This document shows positions 7,660-40,201 of a DNA stretch of 64,000 bases, in pieces. Location: positions 1-64,000 of the forward strand of contig NZ_JANTEZ010000005.1 in assembly GCF_024978135.1 (NCBI RefSeq), written 5' to 3'. The notes beneath the pieces are model-generated. The model had not been told where the DNA came from. It ran no database searches and saw only the letters and a program-made list of their open reading frames with translations. Numbering within the stretch: the first letter of the stretch is position 1; every line of letters starts with the position of its first letter. Both the position numbers and the translations under genes were made by a program. The DNA comes from Herbiconiux gentiana. Lineage in GTDB: Bacteria > Actinomycetota > Actinomycetes > Actinomycetales > Microbacteriaceae.

Positions 7660-8676
7660 TCAGTCCGCGACCGGCCCCGTCGTCCCCCGCAGCACCAGCT
7701 CCACCGGCAGCCGCACCGACCCGATCCCCTCCATCGACCCGGCCGCCAGCCCGTCGAGCAGCAGCTTCGCTGACTGCCGCCCGATCTCGAGCATGTCCTG
7801 CCGCACGGTCGTCAGCCCGGGGGTCACGACCGACGCCATGTCGACGTCGTCGAAGCCGACGACCGACACGTCCTCGGGCACCCGGAGCCCCTCCTCCCAG
7901 AGCCGCCGCATCGCGCCGATCGCCATGAAGTCGTTGCAGGCGAACACCGCGGTGAACTTCACCTCGTGGGCGATCAGGTCGCTCATCAGCTCGTAGCCCG
8001 AGCGGATCTCGAAGTCGCCGTGGATCGCCAGGGCGTTCGGGAACGACTCGCGGATGCCGCGCATCCGCTGCACCGTCGAGTGCAGCCCGGGGAACCCCGC
8101 GATGATCACAGCTTTCGTGTGCCCGAGCGAGCGCACGTGCCGGCCGAGGTCGCGCGCGCCCGAGTAGTTGGTGGAGGTCACCGACGGCAGACCCTCGAGC
8201 TCCTCGATGTCCTCGTCGGCGAGCACGATCGGCGCCGGGGACGACGCCATCGACACGAGCTCGTCGGTGGGTTTGATCTCGCGGCTGGCCGTGTAGACCA
8301 GGCCGTCGATCGCCCGGGTGCGCAGCATGTTGAAGTACCGCTTCTCGCGCCGCGGGTCGGAGTTCGAGGTGCTCGCGATGATGAGGCCGTGGTCGTGCTC
8401 GTTCGCCATCTCCTCGACGCCGCGGGCGATACGGCCGAAGTACCAGTGCGAGATGTCGGGGACGGCCAGGCCGATCACCTGACTGCGGCCCGACTTGAGG
8501 CGGCGCGCGCCCGCGTCGGGCACGTAGCCGTGCTCGTCGATCAGCCGGTTGATGCGCAGCGCGGTGTCCGGATGCACGGGCCGCTTCCCCGACAGCGTGT
8601 GCGACACCGTGGTCACGCTGACGCCGGCGGCCTCGGCGATCTGCTGCATCGTCCAGGGCCGCGGTCGGTCGTTCAC
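7660..8676 (-). CDS. LacI-family transcriptional regulator (locus 1)
   Basis: 338 residues. The N-terminal helix-turn-helix (MQQIAEAAGVSVTTVSHTLSG, residues 10-30) and hinge helix are followed by a periplasmic-binding-like effector domain with the usual SSxxxxxFGF-type ending (VSVVGFDDVDMASVVTPGLTTV). It is divergent from the NMT1-type ABC importer. Two palindromes of LacI type (8720-8733 and 8841-8856) lie in the shared 247-bp region. The start is GTG at 8676, preceded by TACTCT and six bases. The likely effector is the imported compound or its breakdown product. Confidence 0.92.
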   Translation of the reverse strand: MNDRPRPWTMQQIAEAAGVSVTTVSHTLSGKRPVHPDTALRINRLIDEHGYVPDAGARRLKSGRSQVIGLAVPDISHWYFGRIARGVEEMANEHDHGLIIASTSNSDPRREKRYFNMLRTRAIDGLVYTASREIKPTDELVSMASSPAPIVLADEDIEELEGLPSVTSTNYSGARDLGRHVRSLGHTKAVIIAGFPGLHSTVQRMRGIRESFPNALAIHGDFEIRSGYELMSDLIAHEVKFTAVFACNDFMAIGAMRRLWEEGLRVPEDVSVVGFDDVDMASVVTPGLTTVRQDMLEIGRQSAKLLLDGLAAGSMEGIGSVRLPVELVLRGTTGPVAD

Positions 8677-8682
8677 GCCATC

Positions 8683-8688
8683 AGAGTA
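8683..8688 (-). promoter_or_regulatory. Leaderless -10 box for the LacI gene
   Basis: On the reverse strand TACTCT is followed by six bases (GATGGC) and the GTG start at 8676. There is no Shine-Dalgarno sequence. Confidence 0.55.
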
Positions 8689-8719
8689 GCGGAGCGGGCG
8701 GGTCGCGAACGCCGGTTTC

Positions 8720-8733
8720 GCAAAACGTGTTGC
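8720..8733. promoter_or_regulatory. Candidate LacI operator A
   Basis: GCAAAACGTGTTGC has half-sites GCAA/TTGC with a CG centre, typical of LacI-family operators. It lies 32 bp upstream of the LacI -10 box and about 190 bp from the transporter start. Confidence 0.5.
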
Positions 8734-8770
8734 AGAGCATCCTGAAAGCAGGACGAGCGGATGCCCGGTC

Positions 8771-8799
8771 GTTTACACCCCCGAAACACCGGGTAATGG
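8771..8799 (+). promoter_or_regulatory. Candidate promoter of the NMT1-type importer
   Basis: TTTACA (8772-8777), 16 bases, then TAATGG (8794-8799). The spacer holds CCGAAACA, which is repeated at 8802-8809. A near copy of the whole block lies before the BMP importer (33612-33643). The leader to the ATG is long, about 120 bases, and contains operator B. Confidence 0.5.
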
Positions 8800-8840
8800 C
8801 ACCGAAACACCCACGCCTTAGGTTGGGGCCACGCACCCGC

Positions 8841-8856
8841 CGCAAAACGGTTTGCG
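8841..8856. promoter_or_regulatory. Candidate LacI operator B
   Basis: CGCAAAACGGTTTGCG is a near-perfect palindrome with arms CGCAAA/TTTGCG. It sits in the transcribed leader of the importer, downstream of the candidate promoter, where a bound repressor would block elongation. Confidence 0.65.
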
Positions 8857-8923
8857 ACCGCAGCACCCGCACAGCACCCGTTCCTTCCTCACATCCCGCT
8901 CCTCCGAACCCCTAGGAGAACCC

Positions 8924-9982
8924 ATGTCCTCACTGCCCTCGCGCCGCGCCCGCCGCGTGCTCGCCGCCGCGACCGCCGGTGCGCTCAGCCTCGCCGTGCT
9001 CGCCGGCTGCGCCTCCTCCTCGAGCGGCGAGACCGCCTCGAGCGACGGCGCCGCCACGCCGCTGACCCTGCAGACCTCGTGGATCCCCCTCGTGCAGTTC
9101 GGCGGCAGCTACGTCGCCGACAAGGAGGGCTACTACGAGAAGAACGGCGTCGACGTCGACATCCTCCCGGGCGGCCCCGACGTCGACTCGATGGCCGCCG
9201 TGGTCTCGGGTCAGGCCGACATCGGCATGGGCAACGCCGACACCGTCGCCCGCGCGAACGAGCAGGGCGCCGACCTGGTGATCATCGCCGCCGGCTTCCA
9301 GAAGAACCCGCTGGCCATCCTGTCGAGCCCCGACAAGCCCATCGCGACCCCGGCCGACATGGTCGGCATGAAGATCGGCGTGCCCTCGGGCGACGAGGCC
9401 GCGCAGGAGGCCCTGCTCGCCGCGAACGACGTCGACGCCTCGAAGGTCACGAGCGTCCCCGTCGGCTTCGATGTCGCACCGCTCGTGTCGGGCGAGGTCG
9501 ACGGCCTCTGGGTGTTCTACTCCGAGCAGCCGATCGCCTACGAGGAGGCCACCGGCAAGGCCGGCACCGTGTTCCTCACCGCCGACTACGGCCTGGACAT
9601 CTACGCCCAGGTCTACGCCGTGACCCGGGAGAGCCTCGAGGACGACACCAAGCGCGCCGCCATCGAGGGCTTCCTCAAGGGCGAGATCGAGGGCTGGCAG
9701 GCCTACGTGGCCGACCCGACCGAGGCCGTCGAGCTCACGGTCAACGACTACGCGAAGGACGGCGGCCTGACGATCGAGGAGCAGACCAAGCAGGCTCAGC
9801 TGCAGATGGACCTGCTCGTCACTGACGAGACCAAGGAGAACGGCCTGCTGACGATGTCGGCGGACGGCATCGAGAAGAACGTCGCCACCCTCGACACCCT
9901 CGGCATCACCGGCGTCGACGACTCGCTCTTCGACACCTCGGTGCTCGACGAGGTCTACGACGGCTCGAACACCATCAAGTAG
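8924..9982 (+). CDS. ABC substrate-binding lipoprotein, NMT1/THI5-like
   Basis: 352 residues. The lipoprotein signal ends in LAGC with lipidated Cys29. The mature protein is an NMT1/THI5/SsuA-type binding protein: TSWIPLVQFGGSYVADKEGYY is the classic first strand and helix, followed by SGQADIGMGNADTVARA and GLWVFYSEQP. Relatives bind pyrimidine precursors, taurine, sulfonates or nucleobases. The start is ATG at 8924, with AGGAGAA six bases before it; the frame also runs further upstream. It is the first gene of an operon with ATPase, fused permease, nucleoside phosphorylase and amidohydrolase, so a nucleoside-like or purine-like ligand is a reasonable guess. Confidence 0.88.
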   Translation: MSSLPSRRARRVLAAATAGALSLAVLAGCASSSSGETASSDGAATPLTLQTSWIPLVQFGGSYVADKEGYYEKNGVDVDILPGGPDVDSMAAVVSGQADIGMGNADTVARANEQGADLVIIAAGFQKNPLAILSSPDKPIATPADMVGMKIGVPSGDEAAQEALLAANDVDASKVTSVPVGFDVAPLVSGEVDGLWVFYSEQPIAYEEATGKAGTVFLTADYGLDIYAQVYAVTRESLEDDTKRAAIEGFLKGEIEGWQAYVADPTEAVELTVNDYAKDGGLTIEEQTKQAQLQMDLLVTDETKENGLLTMSADGIEKNVATLDTLGITGVDDSLFDTSVLDEVYDGSNTIK

Positions 9983-9988
9983 CACCGC

Positions 9989-10035
9989 CCCGGGCCCTTC
10001 TCCTGCGCGATCTCGTCGCGGGAGGAGGGCCCGGG
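9989..10035 (+). terminator. Intra-operon hairpin after the binding-protein gene
   Basis: CCCGGGCCC-TTCTCC (from 9989) pairs with GGAGGA-GGGCCCGGG (to 10035), giving a very stable imperfect stem. Hairpins here usually attenuate downstream expression and protect the mRNA, so that the binding protein outnumbers the membrane subunits. Confidence 0.6.
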
Positions 10036-10060
10036 CTTCACCACCAGCACTGGAGGCGCC

Positions 10061-10884
<824 letters not shown>

Positions 10885-10888
<4 letters not shown>

Positions 10889-12588
10889 GCGTGAGCACGG
10901 GCGGGAGCCTGAGCACGGCGACCGACACCGCAGCAGAGACCGCAGCCGACACCGCCGCCGCCCGCGCGGCCGGCGCCATCGCCACCGAGCGCGCCCGCAG
11001 CCGTCGCGACGCCCGCCGCGGCGCCCTGAACGGCTGGGTCGTCACCGCCCTCGTCAGCCTCGCCCTCGTGGTGCTCTGGGAGATCGCCGCCGAGCTCTGG
11101 CTCACCCGCCTCGGCGTGCTCGCCTCCCCCACGGCGATCATCCAGAGCCTCGTCGCCGACTGGCCGGTCTACCTCAACGCCTTCTCGGCCACGGCCTGGG
11201 TCGCGGTGCGCGGCTGGTTCTTCGGCAACCTCGCCGCCGTCGTGGTGGCGGTGCTGTTCGTGCAGCTGCCCGCTCTCGAGTCGCTCTTCCTCCGGCTCGC
11301 GCTCACCCTGTTCTGCCTGCCGCTCGTCGCGGTGAACCCGCTGCTGCAGCTGACCTTCGACCCCGACACGGCGAAGGTCGTGCTCGCCGCCCTGTCGGTG
11401 TTCTTCACGACCCTCGTCGGCACGATGCTCGGCCTCCGCTCCGCCGACGGCGGGCCGCTCACGATGGTGACGGCCTGGGGCGGGCGCTCGCTCTCGGCCC
11501 TGCGCTTCGTGCGCTTCCCCTCGGGGATCCCCGCCATCCTGACCGGTCTGCAGATCGGCGCCGCCGCGGCCGTGCTCGGTGCCATCTTCGGCGAGTTCAT
11601 CGGCGCCAAGTCGGGGCTCGGCGTACTGCTGATCAACGGCCTGATGTCGCTCGAGCTCGGCCGCGTCTGGTCGGTCGCGGTGATCGCGACCGTGATGGCC
11701 GCCGTGCCCTACGGCATCTTCGGACTGCTGCGCCGCTGGCTCACCCCCTGGTCGGCCTCGATCTCGACCGCACAGCTCGCGTCGCCCGCCCGTCGCGGGC
11801 CGCTCGCCGCCCGCCTGCTGCGCACCGTGGCCTGGACCGTCGGTTCGATCCTCGTGATCCTCGCCGCCTGGTGGGCCTACCTGATCGTCTTCGACATGTC
11901 GCCGTTCGTCGGCAAGACCCCGCTCGACGTGTTCGCCTACCTGTTCACCGCCGACGACGCGGCCGAGAACCGCGCCGTGATGCTGAAGGCGCTCGGCGAG
12001 ACCCTCGTGCACGCCGGGGTGGGCTACGTCGCGGGCCTCGTGATCGGCATCGCGATGGCGGTCGCGTTCGTGACCTTCCCGGTGGTCGAGCGGGTGCTGA
12101 CCCCGCTCGCCGTGGCGCTGCGCTCGGTGCCCATCATCGTGCTGATCCCCGTGCTCATCCTGGCGCTCGGCCGCGGGCTGGGCGGCGTGGTCGCGATCAC
12201 CGCGATCGTCACCTTCTTCCCCACGCTCGCGAACACGCAGAGCGGTCTGCGCCGGGTGCCCTCCGACGCGTTCACGCTGATGCGCAGCTACGACGCCTCC
12301 GTCTGGAGCAACCTCTGGCGGCTGCAGCTGCCCTACACGCTGCCGTCGATCTTCGCCTCGGCACGCATCGCGGCCCCGACCGCCGTGCTCGCGGCCACCC
12401 TCGCCGAGTGGCTCGCCACCGGCGACGGGCTGGGGCACGAGATCGTCGCGTCCCGCGCCCACTCCGACTACACGGGGCTGTGGGCGGCCGCGGCCATCCT
12501 CACCGCCGTCTCGCTCATCTTCTACAGCCTCGTCAGCTGGGCCGAGCGCGCGGTGCTCGTGAAGTACTCGCCCTCGCAGCTCGGCTGA
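10885..12588 (+). CDS. Fused double-domain ABC permease
   Basis: 567 residues, about twice the usual length. Two BPD_transp_1 permease domains are joined in one chain: domain 1 about residues 50-290, with coupling segment [20 protein letters not shown], and domain 2 about residues 310-560, with [20 protein letters not shown]. Both look intact, so the chain can form the whole transmembrane pore with two ATPase copies. The N-terminal 35 residues are Ala/Thr-rich and not membrane-inserted. The start is GTG at 10885, or GTG two codons later, overlapping the ATPase stop. Confidence 0.9.
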
Positions 12589-12644
12589 CCCACGACATCG
12601 GGACGCGCATCCGCTCGCCCCTCGCCACCTCGGAAGGAATCACC

Positions 12645-13343
12645 ATGCCCACCCCGCACATCGGCGCCCTCGACGGCGACTTCGCCCCCGACGTCCTCAT
12701 GCCGGGCGACCCGCGCCGCGCCAAGCTCATCGCCGAGACCTTCTTCGACTCGCCCCGCCTCGTCACCGAGGTGCGCGGCATCCTCGGCTACACCGGCACC
12801 TTCGAGGGCCGCCCGATCTCGGTGCTGGCCTCGGGCATGGGCATCCCGTCGATGTCGATCTACAGCACCGAGCTCGCGCGCCACTACGGCGTCAAGCGCA
12901 TCGTGCGCGTCGGCACCATCGGCGGTATCGCACCCTACCTCGAGCTCGGCGACGTGATCGCGGCGAGCGCCGCCCACACCAACTCGGCGATGACGAGCGA
13001 GTGGGTGCCCGGCGTCACCCTCAGCCACGCCCCGTCGTTCGGGCTGCTGCGCAAGGCGGTCGAGTTCGGCGAGGCGACGGGCAAGCGGATGCACGTGGGG
13101 CCGCTGTTCACGACGGACGCCTTCTACAACCCCGACGTCGACCTGGTGCCTCGGTTGCTCGCCTACGGCACCATCGGCATCGACATGGAGGCGGCGGGGC
13201 TCTACGCCGTGGCGCTGAAGGAGGGCTTCGAGTCGCTGATGGTCGGCACCGTGAGCGACCTGCCCGGTTCGGAGATGACCGCCGCCGAGCGTGAGGCCAC
13301 CTTCGAGAACATGGTGTCGTTCGGACTGGCGGCGCTGGCGTGA
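12645..13343 (+). CDS. deoD: Purine nucleoside phosphorylase, DeoD type
   Basis: 232 residues matching the hexameric DeoD family. These cleave purine (deoxy)nucleosides with phosphate to free base and (deoxy)ribose 1-phosphate. Landmarks are TPHIGALDGDFAPDVLMPGDP at the N-terminus, the phosphate-site arginines, the VRVGTIGGI loop, MEAAGLYAVA (ribose-binding Met-Glu) and the catalytic Asp in GTVSDLPGSE, where E. coli has SDH. ATG at 12645 with GGAAGGAA ahead; the frame also runs upstream but only as an overlap of the permease. Its stop overlaps the amidohydrolase start (GTGA). Together they suggest import and breakdown of a nucleoside. Confidence 0.9.
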   Translation: MPTPHIGALDGDFAPDVLMPGDPRRAKLIAETFFDSPRLVTEVRGILGYTGTFEGRPISVLASGMGIPSMSIYSTELARHYGVKRIVRVGTIGGIAPYLELGDVIAASAAHTNSAMTSEWVPGVTLSHAPSFGLLRKAVEFGEATGKRMHVGPLFTTDAFYNPDVDLVPRLLAYGTIGIDMEAAGLYAVALKEGFESLMVGTVSDLPGSEMTAAEREATFENMVSFGLAALA

Positions 13344-14761
13344 GCGGGTTCGGCCCCGGCGGCTCGGCCCTCGGTTCCCCCACGACGTCGCCCGACCTCG
13401 GCCCCGCCGACCTCGTCATCACCGGCGCCACCGTGCTGCGGCACGACGAGGGCGGCGGAATCTCGTTCGCGGCCGACCAGATCGTCGTGATCCGGGACGG
13501 CGTGTTCGAGGCGGTGCTCGACGCGGTGGACGCGGGCGGAGCATCCGTCGCCCCGCCCGCGGCGCGCGAGACGATCGACGCCCGTGGCAAGGTGGCGATG
13601 CCCGGGTTCATCAACTGCCACACGCACTCGCCGATGGTGATGTTCCGCGGAGCGGCCGAGGACGTGCCGGCCGACCGCTGGTTCAACGACTTCATCTGGC
13701 CGATGGAGGTGAACCTCACCGACGACGACGTGGAGCTGGCGACACGCCTGGCGGCGGCCGAGATGATCCGGCACGGCGTGACGACCTTCGCCGACCACTA
13801 CTTCAACATGGACCGGATCGCCGCCGTCACCGACGAGACCGGCCTGCGCGGTGTGCTCGGCTCGACCTACTTCTCGACCGACGGACAGGCGGGCCTGGAG
13901 CAGTCGCTCGAGTTCGCGACCCGCTGGCGCGGAGCGGCGAAGGGACGCATCAGCACCGCGCTCGCACCGCACGCGACCTACACGCTGAACGACGACGACC
14001 TCGCGGCCACCGCGCGGGCGGCGCAGGAGCACGACCTGCTCGTGCACATCCACGCGGCGGAGGGCCGGTCGCAGACCGTGCACAGCCGCGAGCGCACGGG
14101 GCGCACACCGATCGGCGTGCTGAGCGACACCGGCCTCCTCGACGGGAAGGTGCTGATCGCGCACGGCATCGGCATCGTGCCGGAGGACCTGCCGCTGCTC
14201 GCTCCCGCCGCAGCGGAGGGCCGGGTCGGCGTGGGCAGCGCGCCGAAGGGCTACCTCAAGCTCGGCTTCGACACGACACCCGTGCGACTGCTGGCCGCGG
14301 CGGGCGTGCCGGTCGGGCTCGCCACCGACGGGGCCGCCTCGAACAACACGCTCGACGTCTGGGAGTCGATGAGCTTCATGGCCTACGTGCAGAAGGCCAC
14401 CGAGCTCGACACGACGTGGATGCGCGCCGAGGAGCTGCTCGACCACGCCACCACCCAGAGTGCCGCCGCCGTGCAGCTCGCGGGCGTCGTCGGGCGGATC
14501 GCTCCGGGCTACCGGGCCGACCTGATCCTCGTCGACCTGAGCGACCCGCGGGTGCAGCCGGTGCACGACCTGGCCAGCACGCTGATCTACAGCGCGCGGT
14601 CGAACGACATCGACACGACCATCGTGGACGGGCAGGTGCTGATGCGTGACCGGCGCCTGCTGACGGTGGACGTGGCGGGCGTGGTGGCCGAGCTGGCGCC
14701 GCGGCTGGCGCGGTTGACCGACCGGTCGCACGGGAAGAGCATCCAGAACTACGACGCGTAG
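13340..14761 (+). CDS. TRZ/ATZ-type amidohydrolase (adenosine/MTA-deaminase-like), paralogue 1
   Basis: 473 residues, amidohydrolase superfamily, near SAH/MTA deaminases and chlorotriazine hydrolases. Metal and catalytic residues: HTH (H94, H96), HIHAAE, IAHGIGI and the late Asp D330 in ATDGAASNN. Close to locus 2's amidohydrolase: both share HTHSPM-MFRGxAEDVP and FIWPMEVNLT-like blocks. Unusual: the strand that normally reads HNPxSNxKL is SAPKGYLK here (K303, Y305, K307). GTG start at 13340 overlaps the phosphorylase stop. Likely a deaminase or ring hydrolase acting on the base released by the phosphorylase; substrate unknown. Confidence 0.85.
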   Translation: MSGFGPGGSALGSPTTSPDLGPADLVITGATVLRHDEGGGISFAADQIVVIRDGVFEAVLDAVDAGGASVAPPAARETIDARGKVAMPGFINCHTHSPMVMFRGAAEDVPADRWFNDFIWPMEVNLTDDDVELATRLAAAEMIRHGVTTFADHYFNMDRIAAVTDETGLRGVLGSTYFSTDGQAGLEQSLEFATRWRGAAKGRISTALAPHATYTLNDDDLAATARAAQEHDLLVHIHAAEGRSQTVHSRERTGRTPIGVLSDTGLLDGKVLIAHGIGIVPEDLPLLAPAAAEGRVGVGSAPKGYLKLGFDTTPVRLLAAAGVPVGLATDGAASNNTLDVWESMSFMAYVQKATELDTTWMRAEELLDHATTQSAAAVQLAGVVGRIAPGYRADLILVDLSDPRVQPVHDLASTLIYSARSNDIDTTIVDGQVLMRDRRLLTVDVAGVVAELAPRLARLTDRSHGKSIQNYDA

Positions 14762-14781
14762 GCGGTGGCCCGGCCTGACCA

Positions 14782-20441: not shown

Positions 20442-20504
20442 GCCACTCCAATGTGACTCGCGGTTGGGACTGGCGGTGGTGACCAGCGGTGTCGTGTGCG
20501 CCGA

Positions 20505-20518
20505 TTGAAGCGCTTCAA
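20505..20518. promoter_or_regulatory. LacI operator, GH3 promoter
   Basis: TTGAAGCGCTTCAA is a perfect 14-bp palindrome. It lies three bases downstream of the GH3 -10 box and between the divergent GH3 and LacI genes. The identical sequence occurs at 27595-27608 before the sugar importer. Confidence 0.85.
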
Positions 20519-20521
20519 GTT

Positions 20522-20550
20522 AAAGTAGGTGGCGGGTCAGCGTGTGTCAA
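20522..20550 (-). promoter_or_regulatory. GH3 promoter (-35/-10)
   Basis: On the reverse strand: TTGACA (20545-20550), 17-bp spacer, TACTTT (20522-20527). The operator overlaps the expected transcription start. Confidence 0.75.
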
Positions 20551-20610
20551 CAGGAGTCGACGGGAAATTCCCTAAGCTGGCGGGAGCCCGTAGCCGAGCC
20601 GTGGAGAACG

Positions 20611-29530: not shown

Positions 29531-30277
29531 TCAGCGGGCCGGCAGCCCCGAGATGAAGTCGGCGAGCACCGCGAGCGATCCCTCGACGGTAGCCGCGAGG
29601 ATGCGCTCGCCCTTCTCGGCGGTCGCGTGTGACGGGTCGCCGAACACTCCCGAGGGCGAGAACGGGTGCAGCTGCATCGGTCGCGTGCCGAAGTCGCTCG
29701 GGAACACCGGGTACTCCGCCGCGTAGCGCTCCGGATGCACGTGCTGCGGCTCGACCGCCAGCATGATCGACGTCTCGACCTCCTCGGCGTGGTTGAGCCC
29801 GGGTGCGGCCCCGGGGCTCGTGCGCACCTGGGCGATGGCGTCGTCCATGCCGGGGTAGTCCAGCGCGATCGCCGGCAGGATGCGCTCGGCGTTCAGCCGG
29901 CGCACGGCCGTGTAGAGCGGCTGCCGGTTGCCCCAGTCCCCGTTCACGACCACGAGCGCGCGTGCACCCGAGGCGGCCAGCGAGCGGCCGATGTCGACGG
30001 CGATCGCCGTGACCGTCTCGGGCGAGAGCGAGACGGTGCCGGGGTAGCCGGCGTTGTTCCAGGTGTCGCCGTAGTGCACGGGCGGCAGCAGCAGGGCGTC
30101 GAGCCGGTCGGCGATCCGCTCGGCCACGGCCGTCGCGGTGGCCGTGTCGGTGCCGAGCGGCAGCTGCGGGCCGTGCTGCTCGAGCGCGCCGAACGGCAGC
30201 AGCGCGAGACCCTCGCCCTCGGCGAGGTGGCGGGCCACATCGGTCCAGGGGGTCGCGTAGGCGTCGAGGCGGCTCAC
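29531..30277 (-). CDS. Creatininase-family amidohydrolase, altered motif
   Basis: 248 residues. Family landmarks: GALEQHGPQLPLGTDT (metal-binding Glu, His, Asp), YGDTWNNAGYPGT and HAEEVETSIML. The central NGHGGN motif is changed to NGDWGN (N112-N117), with Asp114 where a metal-binding His is usual. Relatives hydrolyse creatinine, or act in riboflavin/F420 and mycofactocin pathways. GTG start overlaps the amidohydrolase stop by four bases. Last gene of the locus 2 reverse operon, so it probably acts on a product of the amidohydrolase. Confidence 0.82.
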   Translation of the reverse strand: MSRLDAYATPWTDVARHLAEGEGLALLPFGALEQHGPQLPLGTDTATATAVAERIADRLDALLLPPVHYGDTWNNAGYPGTVSLSPETVTAIAVDIGRSLAASGARALVVVNGDWGNRQPLYTAVRRLNAERILPAIALDYPGMDDAIAQVRTSPGAAPGLNHAEEVETSIMLAVEPQHVHPERYAAEYPVFPSDFGTRPMQLHPFSPSGVFGDPSHATAEKGERILAATVEGSLAVLADFISGLPAR

Positions 30278-32489: not shown

Positions 32490-33541
32490 GGAGTCTCCTT
32501 CGAGTCGGGGGCGGTGGGGACGGTGCGGTCCCGGGTCGAGTGACCCGGCACGAGCTGAGGAGCGAGGCTGACGCGGCGGGCGATCCGCTCGGCACCGGGC
32601 TCGCGGCGGCTCTGCTGCGCGTCGAGCAGCAACCGCACGGCCTCCCGCCCCATCTCGGGCCACGGATGCCGCAGGGTGGTCACCGTGAGATCTTCCCGAC
32701 CGGGCGACAGATCGAGCAGGCTGGCGACCTGCACCCGGCCGGGAACCGCGATGCCGCGCATCCGGAGCACCGCGAGCACGCCCGAGGCCACGTCGTCGTT
32801 GGCGCAAACGATCGCGTCGGGGAGGGCGCCCGGTCCGGCCGCGACGAGCCGTTCGGCCGCGCGGATCCCGCCGTCGAGCACCGCGGCGGTGAAGGGCGCG
32901 ACGTCGACGTCGGCTGCGCCCTCGGCGGCGCCGCGGAGGGCGCGGATGCGGCGGGCGTCGGCGGGAGCATCCGGATCGAGGCCCACGACGAGCACGCGAC
33001 GGGCAGACCGCTCGACCAGGTGCGCCATGAGCATCTGGGTGGCGCGGTCCTCGTCGAGCCCCACCGAGTCGGAGCGGTCGGTGATGACGAAGCGCCCGAC
33101 CTGCACGATCGGCACGGGGCCGGCGGCCTCGATCGACTCCTGGCTCGCCTCGAGCGAGGAGGGGCAGATGATGATGCCGTCGACCCGTCGCGCCATCAGC
33201 GACTCGACGTTGCCCACGTCGTGCAGCGCGTCGGGCTCGGAGTAGCGCAGCACCAGCGAGAGGTCGTTGCGCTCGAGGCCGTCGCTGACCGACTCGATCA
33301 GGGCCGAGAGGAAGCCGGTGGTGTAGCGCGGCAGCACCAGCCCGACCGTCTCGGTGCGCTGGAGGCGCAGGGCGCTCGCGACCGCGTTGCGCCGGTAGCC
33401 GAGCTCGCGACTCGCATCGCGCACCTTGCGGTGCAGGGTGTCGCTGACCGGCCTGGCCCCGGTGAGCGCCCGCGACGCCGTGGCGACGCTGACGCCGGCG
33501 CGGGCCGCCACATCGGCGAGGGTCGGCTCAGGGGTCTGCAT
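32486..33541 (-). CDS. LacI-family transcriptional regulator (locus 2)
   Basis: 351 residues. HTH LADVAARAGVSVATASRALTG at about residues 7-27, then an effector domain of sugar/nucleoside-binding type. ATG at 33541 is preceded by TATGCT and six bases, the leaderless arrangement seen elsewhere in the window; an ATG 13 codons upstream is less likely. It heads a tightly overlapping operon with three enzymes and is divergent from the BMP importer, with LacI-type sites in between. Confidence 0.92.
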   Translation of the reverse strand: MQTPEPTLADVAARAGVSVATASRALTGARPVSDTLHRKVRDASRELGYRRNAVASALRLQRTETVGLVLPRYTTGFLSALIESVSDGLERNDLSLVLRYSEPDALHDVGNVESLMARRVDGIIICPSSLEASQESIEAAGPVPIVQVGRFVITDRSDSVGLDEDRATQMLMAHLVERSARRVLVVGLDPDAPADARRIRALRGAAEGAADVDVAPFTAAVLDGGIRAAERLVAAGPGALPDAIVCANDDVASGVLAVLRMRGIAVPGRVQVASLLDLSPGREDLTVTTLRHPWPEMGREAVRLLLDAQQSRREPGAERIARRVSLAPQLVPGHSTRDRTVPTAPDSKETP

Positions 33542-33547
33542 GCCGAC

Positions 33548-33553
33548 AGCATA
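33548..33553 (-). promoter_or_regulatory. Leaderless -10 box for the locus 2 LacI gene
   Basis: TATGCT on the reverse strand, six bases (GTCGGC), then ATG at 33541. Confidence 0.55.
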
Positions 33554-33586
33554 GGCGCTCTTCAGGCACAGATCGGGCAAAACCAG

Positions 33587-33598
33587 GCAAACGATTGC
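33587..33598. promoter_or_regulatory. Candidate LacI operator C
   Basis: GCAAACGATTGC: half-sites GCAA/TTGC with a CG centre, close to operators A and B of locus 1. It lies between the LacI start and the importer promoter. Confidence 0.6.
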
Positions 33599-33611
33599 AG
33601 GTTGTTGCCGA

Positions 33612-33643
33612 CGTTAAACATGCCCGAAACATACGAGTAATAC
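33612..33643 (+). promoter_or_regulatory. Candidate BMP-importer promoter
   Basis: TTAAAC (33614-33619), 18 bases, TAATAC (33638-33643). It contains CCGAAACA followed by GTAAT with nearly the same spacing as the block at 8771-8799. Confidence 0.5.
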
Positions 33644-33710
33644 CGTTGTCACCGCGCGGACGAACACTGGTTCCCGCACCCCTTTTCCCGCTCTTCCCGC
33701 CCGACGTTTC

Positions 33711-33724
33711 TGCAAACGATTTCC
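33711..33724. promoter_or_regulatory. Candidate LacI operator D
   Basis: TGCAAACGATTTCC shares the GCAAACGAT half and centre with operator C but has a poorer right arm. It lies directly before the CAAGGAG ribosome-binding site of the BMP gene. Confidence 0.45.
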
Positions 33725-33734
33725 AAGGAGCCCC

Positions 33735-34775
33735 ATGACGATCTCGCGCAAGGCCGCCGCCCTCGGCGCCACCGCCCTCACCGCAGCCCTGCTGCTCTCG
33801 GCCTGCTCGGGCAAGACCGCCACGGTGCAGCCGAGCGCCGACGCCGACCTGCCCAAGGTCGCCATGCTCTACGGCACCACGGGCGATTTCTCGTTCATGG
33901 ACAGCGCCTACAAGGGCTTCACCGACGCGCAGTCCGAGTTCTCGTTCACGCCGCTCGACTTCTCGAGCCCGAACACCGACGACTACCAGGACCGCCTCGA
34001 CCTCGCGATCTCGCAGGGCGCCGGCCTCGCGATCGGCATCGGCTTCCAGTACGCGACGCCGATGGAGCAGACCACCGACCACCCCGACACGAAGTTCGTG
34101 GCCGTCGACATCGACAAGGGCACCTCCATCCCCGACGTGACCACCATCTCGTTCGCGGCCGAGCAGTCGTCGTACCTCGTGGGAGTGGCCGCGGCCCTCA
34201 CCTCGAAGACCGGCCACATCGGCTTCGTCGGCGGCGTCGACCAGCCGAGCATCCAGAACTTCTTCGTCGGCTACGAGGCCGGGGCCAAGTCGGTGAACCC
34301 GTCGATCACGGTCGACACCACGTATCTCTCCCCCCTCGGCGACTTCACCGGCTTCTCCGACCCCACCAAGGGCAAGGAGGCCGCCGCCTCGATGTACGCC
34401 GGTGGCGCCGACGTCATCTACGCCGCCGCGGGCGGCTCGGGCCAGGGCGTCTACGAGCAGGCCGCCGCCTCGTCGACGGATGCGCAGAAGAACTGGGCCA
34501 TCGGGGTCGACGGCGACGTCTACAACCAGGTGGACGAGTCGATCAAGCCGTTCATCCTCACCTCGGCGATCAAGAACGTGAACGTCGCTGTCGAGGACTC
34601 GATCAAGTCGTTCCTCGACGGAAGCCTCGAAGCGGGCGAGCAGGACTTCGACCTCTCGAACGACGGCGTCGGCTACTCCACCAGCGGTGGCTTCCTCGAC
34701 GCCTACTCCGACCAGCTCGAGAAGGCGAAGCAGGGCATCATCGACGGCACCGTCGAGGTGCCGAGCGCGGTCTGA
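33735..34775 (+). CDS. BMP-family (PnrA-like) nucleoside-binding lipoprotein
   Basis: 346 residues. Lipoprotein signal ending LSAC, Cys24. Fold of the BMP/PnrA/Med family, known to bind purine nucleosides in spirochaetes and other bacteria: KVAMLYGTTGDFSFMDSAYKGF, FVAVDIDKG, GFVGGVDQPSIQNFFVGYEAG, ADVIYAAAGGSGQGVYEQA and WAIGVDGDVYNQ. ATG at 33735 after CAAGGAG. First gene of a complete importer. Family knowledge plus neighbours favour a nucleoside-like ligand. Confidence 0.92.
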   Translation: MTISRKAAALGATALTAALLLSACSGKTATVQPSADADLPKVAMLYGTTGDFSFMDSAYKGFTDAQSEFSFTPLDFSSPNTDDYQDRLDLAISQGAGLAIGIGFQYATPMEQTTDHPDTKFVAVDIDKGTSIPDVTTISFAAEQSSYLVGVAAALTSKTGHIGFVGGVDQPSIQNFFVGYEAGAKSVNPSITVDTTYLSPLGDFTGFSDPTKGKEAAASMYAGGADVIYAAAGGSGQGVYEQAAASSTDAQKNWAIGVDGDVYNQVDESIKPFILTSAIKNVNVAVEDSIKSFLDGSLEAGEQDFDLSNDGVGYSTSGGFLDAYSDQLEKAKQGIIDGTVEVPSAV

Positions 34776-34791
34776 TCCGCGCCCCCAGACG

Positions 34792-34834
34792 GCGCCCGGT
34801 CGCCGGCGGCCCCACACCGCCGGCGGTCGGGCGC
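34792..34834 (+). terminator. Intra-operon hairpin after the BMP gene
   Basis: GCGCCCG..CGCCGGCGG (from 34792) pairs with CCGCCGGCG..CGGGCGC (to 34834) with two internal mismatches. It lies between binding-protein and ATPase genes, as in the other two SBP-led importer operons. Confidence 0.6.
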
Positions 34835-34911
34835 TCCCAGTTCCCCTCCCCTCCGCCTTTCTAGCCCTCCCCGACCCTCCGACCTCCGACCTCTCCCGAC
34901 AGGAGCACCCG

Positions 34912-36492
34912 ATGAGCGAGACAGCCGAGCCCGACGTGCTGGTGCGGTTGACGGGCATCGTCAAACGCTTCGGCACCTTCGTGGCGAACGATCGCATCGA
35001 CCTCACCGTGCGCGCCGGCACCGTGCACGCGATCGTCGGAGAGAACGGGGCCGGCAAGTCGACCCTGATGAAGATCCTCGCCGGCGAGGAGCGCCCCGAC
35101 GAGGGCACGATCGAGATCGCCGGTTCGCCGCGCACGTTCTCGTCACCTCGGGATGCCCAGCAGGCCGGCATCGGGATGGTGCACCAGCACTTCCTGCTCG
35201 CCTCGGCGCTCCGCGTGTGGGAGAACGTGGTGCTGGCCGACGAACCAGGATCCGCGTTCCGGCTCGACAGCGCCGCCGCCCGCTCCCGGGTCGCCGACCT
35301 CGCCGCCCGCAACGGCTTCGAGGTCGACGTCGACGCTGTGGTGCGCGACGTCGGTGTCGGCGGCCGGCAGCGAGTCGAGATCCTCAAGGTGCTCTACCGC
35401 GACGCCCGCATCATCATCCTCGACGAGCCCACGGCCGTACTCGTGCCGAGCGAGGCCGCCTCGCTGTTCGCCGCCATGCGCCGGTTCACCGACGCCGGGG
35501 CCGCCGTCATCTTCATCTCGCACAAGCTCGACGAGGTGCTCGACTTCGCCGACGAGATCACCGTCATCCGCGCCGGCGCCGTGGTCGGGCAGACGACGCC
35601 CGCCGAGTCGAGCGCCTCCGACCTCGCCGGCCTGATGGTCAAGGTCGCCATGCCCGCCGTCGCGCCGCGCACGGTTCCGCCGGGATCCGACGTCGTGCTC
35701 GCCGCCCACGGCGTCACCGTCGGCGAGGCCGGCGAATTGCCGGCGCTCGACGACGTCTCGCTCGAGGTGCACTCGGGGGAGATCGTCGGCATCGCCGGCG
35801 TCGAGGGCAACGGCCAGTCGGAGCTGCTGATGGCCCTGCTCGGCCGGGTCGCCCACACCGGGCGCATCAGCCTGGCGGGTGAGGACATCGACGGCCTGCC
35901 CACCGAGACCCGCCGCGCCCGGGGCCTCGCCTACATCCCTGAGGACCGGCACCGCGACGGCGTCGTGCTGTCGATGGCGCTGCGCGAGAACGCCGCCCTC
36001 GGCTACCACGGCCGGCCGCCGGTGAAGCGGGGGCCGTGGTTCAGCCGATCCGGTGCCGCCGCCCAGGCCCGCGCCATCATCAGCCGCTTCGACGTGCGGG
36101 GCGGCGACCCGTCCACCCCGGCGTCGGCGCTCTCGGGCGGGAATCAGCAGAAGTTCATCGTCGGCCGCGAGCTGGGCAGCGATCCGCGTGTGCTGATCGC
36201 CGCGCATCCGACCCGTGGTGTCGACATCGGCGCCCAGTCGGCGGTCTGGAGCGAGCTCACCGCCGCGCGCGACCGCGGCCTCGGCACGCTGCTCATCTCG
36301 GCCGACCTCGACGAGCTGCTCGCCCTCAGCGACCGGCTGCTCGTGTTCTACCGCGGACGCATCGTGGGGGCGCTCGACCCGCGGCACGTCGATGCGCAGG
36401 AGCTCGGCGAGTACATGACGGGGGTCAGGACCTCGGCCGGCCCGGCCGCTCCGTCCTCGCCGTCCTCTCCGTCGGAAGGAGACGCCGCATGA
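34912..36492 (+). CDS. Double-NBD ABC ATPase of a nucleoside importer
   Basis: 526 residues with two ATPase domains in tandem. Domain 1 has Walker A GENGAGKST, an unusual signature VGVGGRQRVEIL and IIILDEPTAVL. Domain 2 has a degenerate Walker A (GVEGNGQSE), signature LSGGNQQKFIVGRE and AAHPTRGVD. This pattern is typical of RbsA/BmpB-class ATPases for nucleosides and pentoses. ATG at 34912 with AGGAGCACCCG ahead; an upstream open frame is not used. Overlaps the next permease (ATGA). Confidence 0.93.
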   Translation: MSETAEPDVLVRLTGIVKRFGTFVANDRIDLTVRAGTVHAIVGENGAGKSTLMKILAGEERPDEGTIEIAGSPRTFSSPRDAQQAGIGMVHQHFLLASALRVWENVVLADEPGSAFRLDSAAARSRVADLAARNGFEVDVDAVVRDVGVGGRQRVEILKVLYRDARIIILDEPTAVLVPSEAASLFAAMRRFTDAGAAVIFISHKLDEVLDFADEITVIRAGAVVGQTTPAESSASDLAGLMVKVAMPAVAPRTVPPGSDVVLAAHGVTVGEAGELPALDDVSLEVHSGEIVGIAGVEGNGQSELLMALLGRVAHTGRISLAGEDIDGLPTETRRARGLAYIPEDRHRDGVVLSMALRENAALGYHGRPPVKRGPWFSRSGAAAQARAIISRFDVRGGDPSTPASALSGGNQQKFIVGRELGSDPRVLIAAHPTRGVDIGAQSAVWSELTAARDRGLGTLLISADLDELLALSDRLLVFYRGRIVGALDPRHVDAQELGEYMTGVRTSAGPAAPSSPSSPSEGDAA

Positions 36493-37607
36493 TCCGGCGC
36501 ATCGCGGTCACCCTGGCCGGCCCCGTCGTCTCGGTGCTGCTCGCGCTGCTCGTCACGACCCTCTTCCTGACGATCGGCGGCTACTCGGCCACGAGCGCCT
36601 ACGAGGTGATGTGGAACTACGGCATCGAGCCCGCCTCGCTCGTCTCGGCGCTGAACAACGCCGTGCCGCTCTACCTCGCCGGCGTCGCCGCCGCCTTCGC
36701 GCTGCGGATGGGCCTGTTCAACATCGGCGTCGACGGCCAGTACCGGGTCGCCGCCCTGGCCGGGGCCGTCGTCGCGGCGAACCTGCCCCTGCCGCTCTAC
36801 CTGCGACTGCCGATCACCCTCATCGTGTGCTGCGTCACCGGCGCCCTCTGGGCCCTCGTGCCCGCACTGCTCAAGGTCTACCGGGGCGTCAGCGAGGTGA
36901 TCACGTCGATCCTGATGAACGCCATCGCCACCACCGTCGTCGCGATCCTGCTCGCCGACGTGTTCCGCTCCGGCGGGGGCCAGAACACCGGCACCGCGAT
37001 CATCGGGGCCGAGGGCGCGATGCCCGTGCTGATCGACCTCGGCATCGGCAACCGCACCTCGATCACCGGCTTCCTCGTCGTGGCGATCGTAGTGGGCATC
37101 CTGTTCTACCTGATCCAGTACCGCACGGTCTTCGGCTTCACCCTGCAGGTCGCCTCACGGTCGCCCGAGGCCGCCGAGTCGGCCGGCATCAAGGTGAACC
37201 GCCGCATCATCTGGGCGATGCTCGGCTCCGGCGCGATCGCCGGGCTCGTCGGGATGCCGCACGTGCTGAGCACGGCGTTCCGCTTCGACGGCACCCTGCC
37301 CACCGACCTGATGTTCACCGGTCTGGCGGCGGCGCTGCTCGGCCGCTCGCACCCGATCGGCATCGCGGTCGGCGCGTTCATCCTCGCCTTCGTCGAGCGC
37401 AGTTCGCAGGTGCTCGGCCTCGTGCAGCTGCCGACCGAGGTCGGGTCGGTGTTCATGGCCGTCATCCTGCTGAGCTCGGCGGTCGGGTACTGGCTCACCG
37501 AACGGGCCGACCAGCGCGTCGCGCTCTGGAACGCCCTGCGCCGCCGCCGACGCGAGACCCCGCCGCCCGCCGCACCCCTGCCGACCGGAATGGAGGCCAC
37601 GCGATGA
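36489..37607 (+). CDS. Nucleoside ABC permease 1 (BmpC/YufP-like)
   Basis: 372 residues, about eight to ten membrane segments of the BPD_transp_2 family. ALRMGLFNIGVDGQYRVAALAG and YRGVSEVITSILMNAIA are family landmarks, as is GSGAIAGLVGMPHVL. Starts inside the ATPase stop (ATGA) and ends inside the next permease start. Together the two permeases form the pore. Confidence 0.92.
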   Translation: MIRRIAVTLAGPVVSVLLALLVTTLFLTIGGYSATSAYEVMWNYGIEPASLVSALNNAVPLYLAGVAAAFALRMGLFNIGVDGQYRVAALAGAVVAANLPLPLYLRLPITLIVCCVTGALWALVPALLKVYRGVSEVITSILMNAIATTVVAILLADVFRSGGGQNTGTAIIGAEGAMPVLIDLGIGNRTSITGFLVVAIVVGILFYLIQYRTVFGFTLQVASRSPEAAESAGIKVNRRIIWAMLGSGAIAGLVGMPHVLSTAFRFDGTLPTDLMFTGLAAALLGRSHPIGIAVGAFILAFVERSSQVLGLVQLPTEVGSVFMAVILLSSAVGYWLTERADQRVALWNALRRRRRETPPPAAPLPTGMEATR

Positions 37608-38893
37608 CCGACACCGTCGAGCCCACCGTCCCCACCGCCCCGGCGGCCGCCCCCCGCTCACTCGCCCCGAGCCGGCAGCGGCTGCGGGCGGCGCTCCGCT
37701 GGGGTCTGCTCGGCCTCGGTCTCATCATCGTCGCCCAGTACGTCGCCGATGCGCCCGGCATCGCGGCCTCGTCCACCTGGGGCTCCGCGCTGCGCCTCAC
37801 GGTGCCGATCGCCGTGGTCGCGATCGGCGGGCTCTACTCCGAGCGCGCGGGGGTCATCAACGTGGGCCTCGAGGGCATGATGATCGGCGGCACCTGGATG
37901 GCCGGCGTCTTCGGCTGGTTCTGGGGCCCGTGGGCCGCCCTCGGCGGCGGCGTCGTGGGCGGGCTCGTGTTCGGGCTGCTGATGGCGGTGCTCTGCATCG
38001 AGATGGGGCTCAACCAGCTCATCGTGGGTGTGGCCATCAACGTGGTCGCCGGAGCATCCGCCCGCTTCGCCAGCGACATCGTGTTCAACGGGGTCGACGG
38101 CGGTACGATCGCCCGCTCGCCTCGCATCGACGGCTCGCTGCCGGTGCTCAGCGTGCCGTTCCTCTCGGGCGGGCTCGGCACGCCCGACCTCACCGGGGAC
38201 ATGGAGCAGTCGGGCATCCCGGTCGTGTCGCAGCTCGGCGGCATCGTCGGCGGCCTCACCCACGACGTCTCGCTCGCCGCCGTGATCGGGCTGCTGCTCA
38301 TCCCGGCCACGGCCTACGTGCTGTGGCGCACCAAGTTCGGTCTGCGCTGGCGTGCGGCCGGCGAGGAGCCCGCGGCCCTGCAGGCGCTCGGCGGCAAGGT
38401 GCACCGCACCCGCTGGATCGCCGTGCTCGTCGGCAGCGGCCTGGCCGGCTTCGCGGGCGGCTACCTCGCGCTGATCTCGCAGGCCTACGTCGAGAACCAG
38501 ACCGCGGGGCGCGGCTTCATCGGTCTGGCGACCCTCATCTTCGGCAACTGGATGCCCTCGGGCGTCTTCCTCGGATCGTCGCTGTTCGGCTTCTCCGACG
38601 CCGTCGGCCTCGGGCGGCCCGAGACGTTCCGGGCGCTGCTGTTCATCCTCGCGGTAGTGTTCCTCGTCGTCGGAGCCCTGCGGTTCTGGCGGGCATCCCG
38701 CCGCTCGGGGATCGCCCCGCTCGCCCTCGGTGCGGTGCTCGTGCTGGTGTTCCTGTTCGTGCCGCTGCCCCCCGAGCTCGCCACGGCGGCGCCGTACCTC
38801 GTCACCCTCGCGGTGCTCGTGGTGGCCGGAACGACCATGCGCCCGCCGGCCGCCCTCGGGCACCTGTTCCCGCGGCGTAACTCGCGCAGCTGA
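37604..38893 (+). CDS. Nucleoside ABC permease 2 (BmpD/YufQ-like)
   Basis: 429 residues. LYSERAGVINVGLEGMMIGGTWMAG is the conserved first motif; KFGLRWRAAGEEPAALQALGG is the cytoplasmic loop and FIGLATLIFGNWMPSG the late segment. Longer than usual by about 80 residues because of an N-terminal Ala/Pro tail and two extra C-terminal hydrophobic segments (about 355-410). ATGA overlap with permease 1. Confidence 0.92.
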   Translation: MTDTVEPTVPTAPAAAPRSLAPSRQRLRAALRWGLLGLGLIIVAQYVADAPGIAASSTWGSALRLTVPIAVVAIGGLYSERAGVINVGLEGMMIGGTWMAGVFGWFWGPWAALGGGVVGGLVFGLLMAVLCIEMGLNQLIVGVAINVVAGASARFASDIVFNGVDGGTIARSPRIDGSLPVLSVPFLSGGLGTPDLTGDMEQSGIPVVSQLGGIVGGLTHDVSLAAVIGLLLIPATAYVLWRTKFGLRWRAAGEEPAALQALGGKVHRTRWIAVLVGSGLAGFAGGYLALISQAYVENQTAGRGFIGLATLIFGNWMPSGVFLGSSLFGFSDAVGLGRPETFRALLFILAVVFLVVGALRFWRASRRSGIAPLALGAVLVLVFLFVPLPPELATAAPYLVTLAVLVVAGTTMRPPAALGHLFPRRNSRS

Positions 38894-38959
38894 GCCGCTC
38901 GTTCCGTCCCTCCCGCTCCTCCCCCAGCTGACCCGTCCCTCCCCACCCGTCAGGACCCC

Positions 38960-40201
38960 ATGAACCACTCCCTCACCGCCGAGCTCTGGGACGGCACGAC
39001 CGCCCGCGGCACCGTCATCCTCGACTGGACGGTCGACGGCACCGACGGTGTCGTGTCGGGGCTGCGGCCCGCCGACGCCGGGGACGCCTCGTCCGCCGGC
39101 GCCGGCCTCCCCGCCGGCGTCAGCATCATCCCCGGCCTGATCGACACCCACGTGCACCTGGTCGGCCACGCCGGCCCGGGCACCGCCGACTTCCTCACCT
39201 GGCCGCTCACCACGCGCCCCGAGGAGCAGACCCTGCACGGCCTGGCCAATGCCCGGGCTGCTCTGCGCGGCGGGGTCACGACCCTCCGCGACCTCTCGGC
39301 CGACGACATCCAGTTCTCGCTGCGTCGCGCGCTCGAGCAGGGCGTCGTCGAGGGCCCCCGCCTGCAGGCGCACGGCATGGTCAGCATGACGGCGGGGCAC
39401 GGCGACCTCTTCACGCCGGCGGCCTACCCGCTGCGCAGGCCTGTCGCCGACGGACCCGACGAGTGCCGCAAGCTCGTGCGGCACTGGGCCCGCGCCGGCG
39501 CCGACGGCATCAAGATCGCCACCAGCGGCGGCGTGCTCTCGGTGGGCGACAAGAGCGCTTGGCGCAACTACACGGCGCCCGAGATCGACGCGATCGTCGA
39601 CGAGGCGCACGCGCTCGGCCTGCGGGTCGCCGCACACGCCCACACCGAGGCGGGCATCGACGCCGCCATCTGGCACGAGGTCGACTCGATCGAGCACGGC
39701 ACCCTGCTCACCGCCGCCCAGGCCGACCGCATCGCGGGCCTCGGCATCACCGTCGCCCCCACGCTGCTCATCAACGACCGCATCGCCGCCGGCCGCAACG
39801 GGGTCTCCCCCGAGCAGGCGTCGAAGGCGGCGGCCCTCGTCGTCGAACGCGACTCCCGGATGCGCGAAGCCGCCGACCTCGGCGTCGACTTCGTGCTGGG
39901 CACCGACGCCAACGGCCACCACGTCGACTTCGGCGACCAGATGGAGGAGGTGCGCCTGATGGCGCAGACCTTCGGCTGGTCGCCTTCCCGGGCTTTGGAG
40001 GCGGCGACGTCCCGCGCCGCGCGAGCCATCGGTGAAGAGGGCCGACTCGGCGTGCTCGCACCGGGGGCCGCCGCAGACTTCCTCGTGATCGAGGGCCGGC
40101 CCTGGGAGGATCTCTCCTCGCTCGACCCCTCACGCATCGTCGCGGTCGTCTCGCGCGGACGGGTCGTGTTCGGGGCCCTGCCCGAGCTCAGCCCTCGGTG
40201 A
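38960..40201 (+). CDS. Metal-dependent amidohydrolase, prolidase/imidazolonepropionase-like
   Basis: 413 residues of the Met_dep_hydrolase_A branch. PGLIDTHVHL gives the first two metal His, GIKIATSGG the carboxylated-Lys site, RVAAHAHT and IEHGT further His ligands and GTDANGH the catalytic Asp. Enzymes here cleave N-acyl amino acids, Xaa-Pro dipeptides or imidazolones. It follows the importer permeases by 66 bases and is likely in the same transcript, adding a third ring/amide hydrolase to locus 2. Ends 14 bases inside the convergent MarR gene. Confidence 0.85.
   Translation: MNHSLTAELWDGTTARGTVILDWTVDGTDGVVSGLRPADAGDASSAGAGLPAGVSIIPGLIDTHVHLVGHAGPGTADFLTWPLTTRPEEQTLHGLANARAALRGGVTTLRDLSADDIQFSLRRALEQGVVEGPRLQAHGMVSMTAGHGDLFTPAAYPLRRPVADGPDECRKLVRHWARAGADGIKIATSGGVLSVGDKSAWRNYTAPEIDAIVDEAHALGLRVAAHAHTEAGIDAAIWHEVDSIEHGTLLTAAQADRIAGLGITVAPTLLINDRIAAGRNGVSPEQASKAAALVVERDSRMREAADLGVDFVLGTDANGHHVDFGDQMEEVRLMAQTFGWSPSRALEAATSRAARAIGEEGRLGVLAPGAAADFLVIEGRPWEDLSSLDPSRIVAVVSRGRVVFGALPELSPR

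What the first reader, a model, noticed from the sequence alone, without database searches (positions are those of the whole stretch)
7660..40201. Two LacI-controlled nucleoside-like import clusters that may be one undescribed scavenging system
Locus 1 (7660-14761: LacI, NMT1-type ABC, DeoD phosphorylase, amidohydrolase) and locus 2 (29531-40201: LacI, GATase-like, amidohydrolase, creatininase, BMP-type ABC, prolidase-like hydrolase) have the same logic. In each, a leaderless lacI gene is divergent from an importer and an amidohydrolase paralogue is present. Their operator-like sites share GCAAA-CG-TTTGC character (8720, 8841, 33587, 33711). Seen: gene order, motifs, sites. Known: BMP and DeoD families act on nucleosides. 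Inference: coordinated uptake and ring opening of a nucleoside-like or N-heterocyclic compound, perhaps plant-derived. The substrate is not readable.
Basis: partly seen in the sequence, partly recalled or inferred. Interest (0 to 1): 0.75.

Follow-up and report, generated by a model that had tools for sequence, protein, structure and literature searches.

The report
Split nucleoside-scavenging gene cluster in Herbiconiux
The two gene groups look like halves of one conserved gene set with which some actinobacteria take up and break down adenosine-like building blocks of RNA; in this genome other genes lie between the halves, and several of its enzymes still have no known substrate.

Summary
The one-system guess holds up: in six relatives of three genera the loci abut (a seventh contig breaks off inside locus 2); in the window and two sister genomes other genes lie between. 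Among 398 family genomes the locus-1 and locus-2 markers occur in 11 and 13, together in 8 (0.36 expected). The likely substrates are purine nucleosides: the BMP protein's solved relatives include nucleoside receptors, DeoD is a purine-nucleoside phosphorylase, and of 14 regions with the NMT1 protein seven have the locus-1 amidohydrolase and seven an adenosine-deaminase-family gene, none both. The shared-operator claim needs correction: the sites form two classes (GCAA-N6-TTGC for LacI1, GCAA-N4-TTGC for LacI2). Yet in three relatives without LacI2 the locus-2 promoter carries the N6 site, and there the motif occurs nowhere else in the genome than this cluster. Substrates, inducer and pathway direction are inference. 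The creatininase-like, GATase-like and prolidase-like proteins remain unexplained; ring opening and a plant-derived substrate are not shown. New variant of a known kind, moderate interest.

The parts
7660..8676 (-). lacI1, repressor of locus 1 (helix TTVSH)
   Evidence: PF00356/PF13377; GTG start column kept in 10 aligned relatives
8720..8733 (.). LacI1-type operator GCAAAACGTGTTGC (N6 class)
   Evidence: footprint in 10 of 10 aligned regions
8842..8855 (.). LacI1-type operator GCAAAACGGTTTGC (N6 class)
   Evidence: footprint in 10 of 10 aligned regions
8924..9982 (+). NMT1/THI5-type ABC binding protein
   Evidence: PF09084; nearest solved relative 3ix1, formylaminopyrimidine-binding
10061..10888 (+). 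ABC ATPase
   Evidence: PF00005
10885..12588 (+). double-length ABC permease
   Evidence: PF00528, two stretches
12645..13343 (+). DeoD-type purine-nucleoside phosphorylase
   Evidence: NF004489 251.5 bits, cut-off 230
13340..14761 (+). AMI1, amidohydrolase, likely nucleoside deaminase
   Evidence: PF01979; relatives of MTA/SAH deaminases; slot taken by adenosine-deaminase-family genes elsewhere
29531..30277 (-). CREAT, creatininase-family protein with NGDWGN
   Evidence: PF02633
30274..31737 (-). AMI2, amidohydrolase, paralogue of AMI1
   Evidence: PF01979
31734..32489 (-). GAT, GATase1-like protein
   Evidence: PF07090, 290 bits
32486..33541 (-). lacI2, repressor of locus 2 (helix ATASR)
   Evidence: PF00356/PF13377
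33587..33598 (.). LacI2-type operator GCAAACGATTGC (N4 class)
33712..33723 (.). degenerate LacI2-type site GCAAACGATTTC
33735..34775 (+). BMP/PnrA-type nucleoside-binding protein
   Evidence: PF02608
34912..36492 (+). ABC ATPase with two nucleotide-binding domains
   Evidence: PF00005, two stretches
36489..37607 (+). ABC permease
   Evidence: PF02653
37604..38893 (+). ABC permease
   Evidence: PF02653
38960..40201 (+). DIPEP, prolidase/carboxypeptidase-like amidohydrolase
   Evidence: PF01979; nearest solved relative Cc2672

Best explanation
The two loci are halves of one conserved purine-nucleoside scavenging cluster found in a minority of Microbacteriaceae, separated in this genome by about 14.8 kb of other genes (among them an alpha-L-rhamnosidase and a GH3 glycosidase gene). 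A BMP/PnrA-type ABC importer brings in ribonucleosides; an NMT1-type ABC importer brings in the same or a related purine compound. AMI1 deaminates an adenosine-type nucleoside to an inosine-type one, DeoD splits it to base and ribose-1-phosphate, and LacI repressors switch the halves on. AMI2, the creatininase-like and the prolidase-like enzymes act on further or modified nucleosides or their products by reactions I cannot name. Shown: genes, conserved linkage, two operator classes, the AMI1/adenosine-deaminase alternation, nucleoside-salvage surroundings elsewhere. Inferred: substrates, order of steps, inducer.
For: Halves abut in G004, G009, G010, G040, G153, G322, and in G008 up to the contig end. 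Markers in 11 and 13 of 398 genomes, both in 8, 0.36 expected, P 1.4e-11; 3 of 85 genera with both, P 0.0037. Of 14 regions with the NMT1 protein, AMI1 in 7, an adenosine-deaminase-family gene in 7, both in 0. DeoD passes NF004489. Solved relatives of the BMP protein include TmpC and BmpD. In G220, AMI2, CREAT and DIPEP lie among cytidine deaminase, thymidine phosphorylase, adenosine deaminase and purine-nucleoside phosphorylase genes. A second CREAT-DIPEP pair in this genome lies with adenine deaminase, adenosine deaminase and a BMP protein. The N6 operator is at both halves in G040, G153, G322.
Against: 3 of 11 locus-1 and 5 of 13 locus-2 genomes have one half only. Of the 8 with both, 5 are one genus and 2 another. 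In the window the halves have different LacI proteins and different operators. AMI1 and AMI2 reach no NCBIfam equivalog cut-off. The NMT1 protein's nearest solved relative binds a thiamine pyrimidine, not a nucleoside. No substrate was tested.
Confidence: 0.72

Rival explanations
1. Two independent nucleoside systems that merely share a neighbourhood: an NMT1-DeoD-deaminase purine module under LacI1, and a BMP-AMI2-CREAT-DIPEP module under LacI2, each with its own substrate and inducer.
For: Distinct operators and recognition helices in the window; either half occurs alone in 3 of 11 and 5 of 13 genomes; separated in 3 of the 10 genomes found with both.
Against: Contiguity in three genera; genes mix across the halves in G005, G056 and G259; the N6 site at both halves in G040, G153, G322.
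Confidence: 0.17
2. Uptake and ring opening of a non-nucleoside N-heterocycle (creatinine, hydantoin, cytokinin base or similar), as the first reader suggested as one option.
For: Creatininase-family and several amidohydrolase-family proteins; NMT1 relatives bind a pyrimidine.
Against: CREAT is far below the creatininase equivalog cut-off (128.8 against 235 bits) and lacks its NGHYEN stretch; nucleoside phosphorylase and nucleoside-receptor relatives; purine-salvage surroundings.
Confidence: 0.06
3. Detoxification of nucleoside antibiotics rather than nutrition.
For: Patchy distribution (markers in 11 and 13 of 398); amide-cleaving relatives of DIPEP such as ochratoxinase.
Against: Two importers and a phosphorylase fit scavenging better; I saw no export or resistance gene recurring in the mapped clusters, though not every neighbour was classified.
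Confidence: 0.05

Closest known systems
PnrA/BMP-type nucleoside ABC importers (TmpC of Treponema, PnrA of pneumococcus, Borrelia BmpD)
   Same: PF02608 binding protein, one ATPase, two PF02653 permeases; solved relatives include TmpC and BmpD
   Different: Sits with AMI2, CREAT, GAT and DIPEP under a LacI protein; 26-32% identical to the genome's own other BMP proteins found
Actinobacterial nucleoside-salvage clusters (Cdd, BMP importer, DeoA, Ada, purine-nucleoside phosphorylase)
   Same: In G220 this cluster also carries AMI2, CREAT and DIPEP
   Different: The window cluster has a second, NMT1-type importer, DeoD instead of that phosphorylase, and its own LacI control
ThiY-type (NMT1/THI5) thiamine-pyrimidine importers
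   Same: PF09084 binding protein; nearest solved relative 3ix1
   Different: Fused double permease and operon with DeoD and a deaminase; I recognised no thiamine gene in the clusters mapped, by similarity only
MTA/SAH deaminases (cog0402 amidohydrolases such as 4f0r)
   Same: Family, catalytic motifs and the IWPxE glutamate
   Different: Below all NCBIfam equivalog cut-offs; shorter loop after the LGSTYF/LASTFF strand in the alignments

Membership tests
PnrA/BMP nucleoside importer | PF02608 binding protein with PF02653 permeases | tested here: met
PnrA/BMP nucleoside importer | pocket residues (aromatic sandwich, ribose-binding Asp and Lys, after PMC13325309) | tested here: inconclusive
   GVD and SAxK motifs kept against Lbp and the pneumococcal protein; mapping of BmpA numbers by motif, no BmpA sequence in hand
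PnrA/BMP nucleoside importer | binds a nucleoside | not testable with these tools
   needs a binding assay
DeoD purine-nucleoside phosphorylase | curated model cut-off | tested here: met
   NF004489 251.5 against 230; TIGR00107 229.6 against 232.25, just under
MTA/SAH/adenosine deaminase of cog0402 | amidohydrolase catalytic motifs | tested here: met
   catalytic His, Glu and Asp columns invariant in 17 AMI1 and 20 AMI2 rows; roles recalled
MTA/SAH/adenosine deaminase of cog0402 | NCBIfam equivalog cut-off | tested here: not met
   AMI1 187.1 and AMI2 186.1 against 779 for NF012037
Creatininase | PF02633 domain | tested here: met
   214 bits
Creatininase | equivalog cut-off and NGHYEN metal-site stretch | tested here: not met
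   128.8 against 235 bits; NGDWGN in 18 of 18 rows
Class I glutamine amidotransferase | nucleophile-elbow cysteine | tested here: inconclusive
   no Cys in the expected stretch in 12 rows, an invariant Cys elsewhere (C196); model too poor to place it
Xaa-Pro dipeptidase (NF051886) | equivalog cut-off | tested here: not met
   221.8 against 500 bits
ThiY-type thiamine-pyrimidine importer | PF09084 binding protein | tested here: met
ThiY-type thiamine-pyrimidine importer | company of thiamine genes or a thiamine riboswitch | not tested
   no riboswitch search was run; gene maps were read by similarity only

The most novel reading that the evidence does not exclude
A dedicated salvage route for amino-acid-bearing adenosines from tRNA turnover, such as N6-threonylcarbamoyladenosine and its cyclic hydantoin form. 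CREAT would open the cyclic form; DIPEP, a relative of carboxypeptidases and more distantly of phenylurea hydrolase, would remove the amino acid; AMI1 or adenosine deaminase with DeoD would finish the adenosine, and AMI2 would remove other N6 groups. This would give the creatininase-prolidase pair, which recurs beside purine deaminases, one purpose.
Probability: 0.08. Interest if true: 0.75.

Novelty: new variant of a known kind. Interest (0 to 1): 0.45.

Why it matters
If right, it ties an NMT1-type importer, a family best known for thiamine pyrimidines, to purine nucleosides; names an amidohydrolase that stands in for adenosine deaminase; and links a creatininase subtype and a prolidase-like enzyme to nucleoside catabolism, giving enzymes without a substrate a short list to test. 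The change of operator class at locus 2 between genomes with and without LacI2 looks like a natural case of regulator replacement.

Tried and rejected
Rejected: one regulator for all four window sites (two spacing classes). A recent tandem duplication of AMI1/AMI2: AMI2 forms a supported clade of 20 rows (96/99), and eight genomes of one large-genome genus (g115) hold proteins whose best match is AMI1 at 58-62% (AMI1 itself is not a supported single clade, and G627 and the outgroups have long branches). True creatininase or Xaa-Pro dipeptidase identity. Futalosine hydrolase for the phosphorylase (24.9 against 124.7 bits).

Led nowhere: structure predictions of GAT (mean pLDDT 57.2, four sequences) and of the NMT1 protein (35.4, three sequences) were too poor, and no fold search was run. 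Paper searches (open PMC library only) gave no listing that describes this cluster; for most hits only the listing was seen. Passages were read of PMC13325309 and PMC9870897 (its 'NMT1' is not an importer). The standalone AMI1-like genes of g115 had no nucleoside gene that I recognised nearby. Of the 31 CREAT places, 26 were seen in context and 5 were not.
Full report
What is there. Locus 1 is lacI1 (7660-8676, -) divergent from an NMT1-type binding protein, an ATPase, a double-length permease, a DeoD purine-nucleoside phosphorylase and an amidohydrolase, AMI1 (8924-14761, +). Locus 2 is a creatininase-family protein (CREAT), a second amidohydrolase (AMI2), a GATase1-like protein (GAT) and lacI2 on the minus strand (29531-33541), divergent from a BMP binding protein, an ATPase, two permeases and a prolidase-like amidohydrolase (DIPEP) on the plus strand (33735-40201). 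AMI1 and AMI2 are 53-54% identical and nearest to each other in the genome; the next match is 32%. The named records that carry the closest AMI2 relatives are Herbiconiux.

One system or two. Of 16 genus genomes, own included, 9 hold a close AMI homologue, and I mapped the eight relatives. In G009 the halves abut: AMI1 and CREAT overlap by 4 bp tail to tail. G004 and G010 are contiguous too, with an adenosine-deaminase-family gene at the junction; G010 lacks CREAT and has an M24-family gene there. In G008 the contig ends inside AMI2, after locus 1, such a deaminase gene and an M24 gene. Outside the genus, G040, G153 and G322 have the halves contiguous. The window, G003 and G012 are the other 3 of the 10 genomes found with both halves; there 14.8, 15.7 and 29.8 kb separate them, and the window genes w14-w25 lie between in all three. 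In 398 family genomes the locus-1 permease occurs in 11, the locus-2 BMP protein in 13, both in 8; 0.36 are expected, P 1.4e-11; by genus 3 of 85 have both, 0.42 expected, P 0.0037. Against this, 3 of 11 and 5 of 13 have one half only, and 5 of the 8 are one genus and 2 another, so the P values ignore relatedness. The halves also mix: GAT and CREAT beside locus 1 in G259, GAT beside locus 1 in G056, AMI1 beside a locus 2 without AMI2 and GAT in G005.

Substrate class. I saw 14 regions with the NMT1 protein, window included; they were reached through AMI2 and permease searches, so they are not a free sample. Seven have AMI1 (window, G003, G009, G012, G153, G322, G401) and seven an adenosine-deaminase-family gene (G004, G008, G010, G040, G056, G185, G259); none has both. 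PF00962 was confirmed for G004 and G185; the others are by similarity to G004. In five of them the gene follows DeoD directly. AMI1 therefore probably does the work of an adenosine deaminase. AMI2 coexists with such genes in 10 regions (G004, G008, G010, G040, G056, G110, G127, G220, G264, G301) and so probably has another substrate. The nearest solved relatives of both are MTA/SAH-type deaminases, with catalytic motifs kept. That the IWPxE glutamate holds the ribose hydroxyls is recalled from the TM0936 work; one search found no paper to check it. Solved relatives of the BMP protein include TmpC, BmpD and a pneumococcal lipoprotein that I recall as PnrA; motifs matching the ribose-binding Asp and Lys named in PMC13325309 (passages) are kept. 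DeoD passes its subfamily cut-off.

The unexplained enzymes. In G220, AMI2, CREAT and DIPEP lie among a BMP importer and genes confirmed as cytidine deaminase, thymidine phosphorylase, adenosine deaminase and purine-nucleoside phosphorylase; G056, G110, G127 and G264 look alike by gene order but were not confirmed by models. In this genome a second CREAT-DIPEP pair (54-57% identical) lies at C11 with adenine deaminase, adenosine deaminase, a CDA-fold deaminase and a BMP protein. CREAT was found in 27 regions other than the window row, 22 of which also hold DIPEP; five do not (G259, c243, c056, c310, c365). CREAT has NGDWGN where creatininase has NGHYEN, in 18 of 18 rows. AMI2's NCBIfam best matches and CREAT, DIPEP and GAT scores give no specific function. 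No result shows ring opening.

Regulation. Ten lacI1-NMT1 intergenic regions were aligned: each has two GCAA-N6-TTGC sites and no N4 site. Two more, read separately, have one such site each (G259; G056, imperfect), and G401 (GntR instead of LacI) and G185 none. Of 13 BMP-side regions, ten belong to genomes with LacI2: nine have N4 sites, none an N6 site, and G307 has neither. The three without LacI2 (G040, G153, G322) have an N6 site, GCAAAGCGTTTTGC, and no N4 site. Genome-wide, the N6 pattern is at three places each in G040, G153 and G322, two at locus 1 and one at locus 2; the reversed-pattern control gave one match in each of them. In the other genomes searched there are sites elsewhere: one of 3 places in the window genome (C12:522748, near a gene unlike these) and three of 5 in G009. 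The N4 pattern also has places outside locus 2: two of 4 in G005 and the single one each in G153 and G322. LacI1 and the locus-2 LacI of G040 share the TTVSH helix; LacI2 has ATASR.

Judgement. One linked purine-nucleoside scavenging system is the best reading (0.72). The new part is the combination: a second importer of NMT1 type, AMI1 in place of adenosine deaminase, and a creatininase-prolidase pair that accompanies purine salvage. The single families are known, hence new variant of a known kind. I found no paper describing it in the searches named, which cover only open PMC papers.

Noticed in passing
G000:C11:338000-348212 (L209): A paralogous purine island in the same genome: adenine deaminase, BMP protein and ATPase, adenosine deaminase, CDA-fold deaminase, DIPEP (56%) and CREAT (54-57%).
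   Followed up: partly
L162-L169: Eight genomes of one large-genome genus (g115) carry an AMI1-like gene (58-62%) away from any nucleoside gene I recognised.
   Followed up: partly
window 17505-24363: The block between the halves holds a GH3 glycosidase and an alpha-L-rhamnosidase gene, with a LacI-like and ABC genes beside them by similarity.
   Followed up: no
window 42943-44436; L116:1678-2295: A permease like that of urea-carboxylase systems (TIGR03428, 535.7 against cut-off 740.45) lies near locus 2; in G111 a 43% relative and a UAAP2 gene (TIGR03424) lie beside a locus-2 copy.
   Followed up: no
window 41592-42815; G000:C11:210804-212117: Gene w37 has a 90% identical second copy elsewhere in the genome; its family was not looked up.
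   Followed up: no
G010:C48:16905-18305; G008:C1034:14167-15570; G185:C1:412717-413973: An M24-family (creatinase/prolidase fold) gene sits beside the adenosine-deaminase-family gene in three NMT1 clusters.
   Followed up: partly
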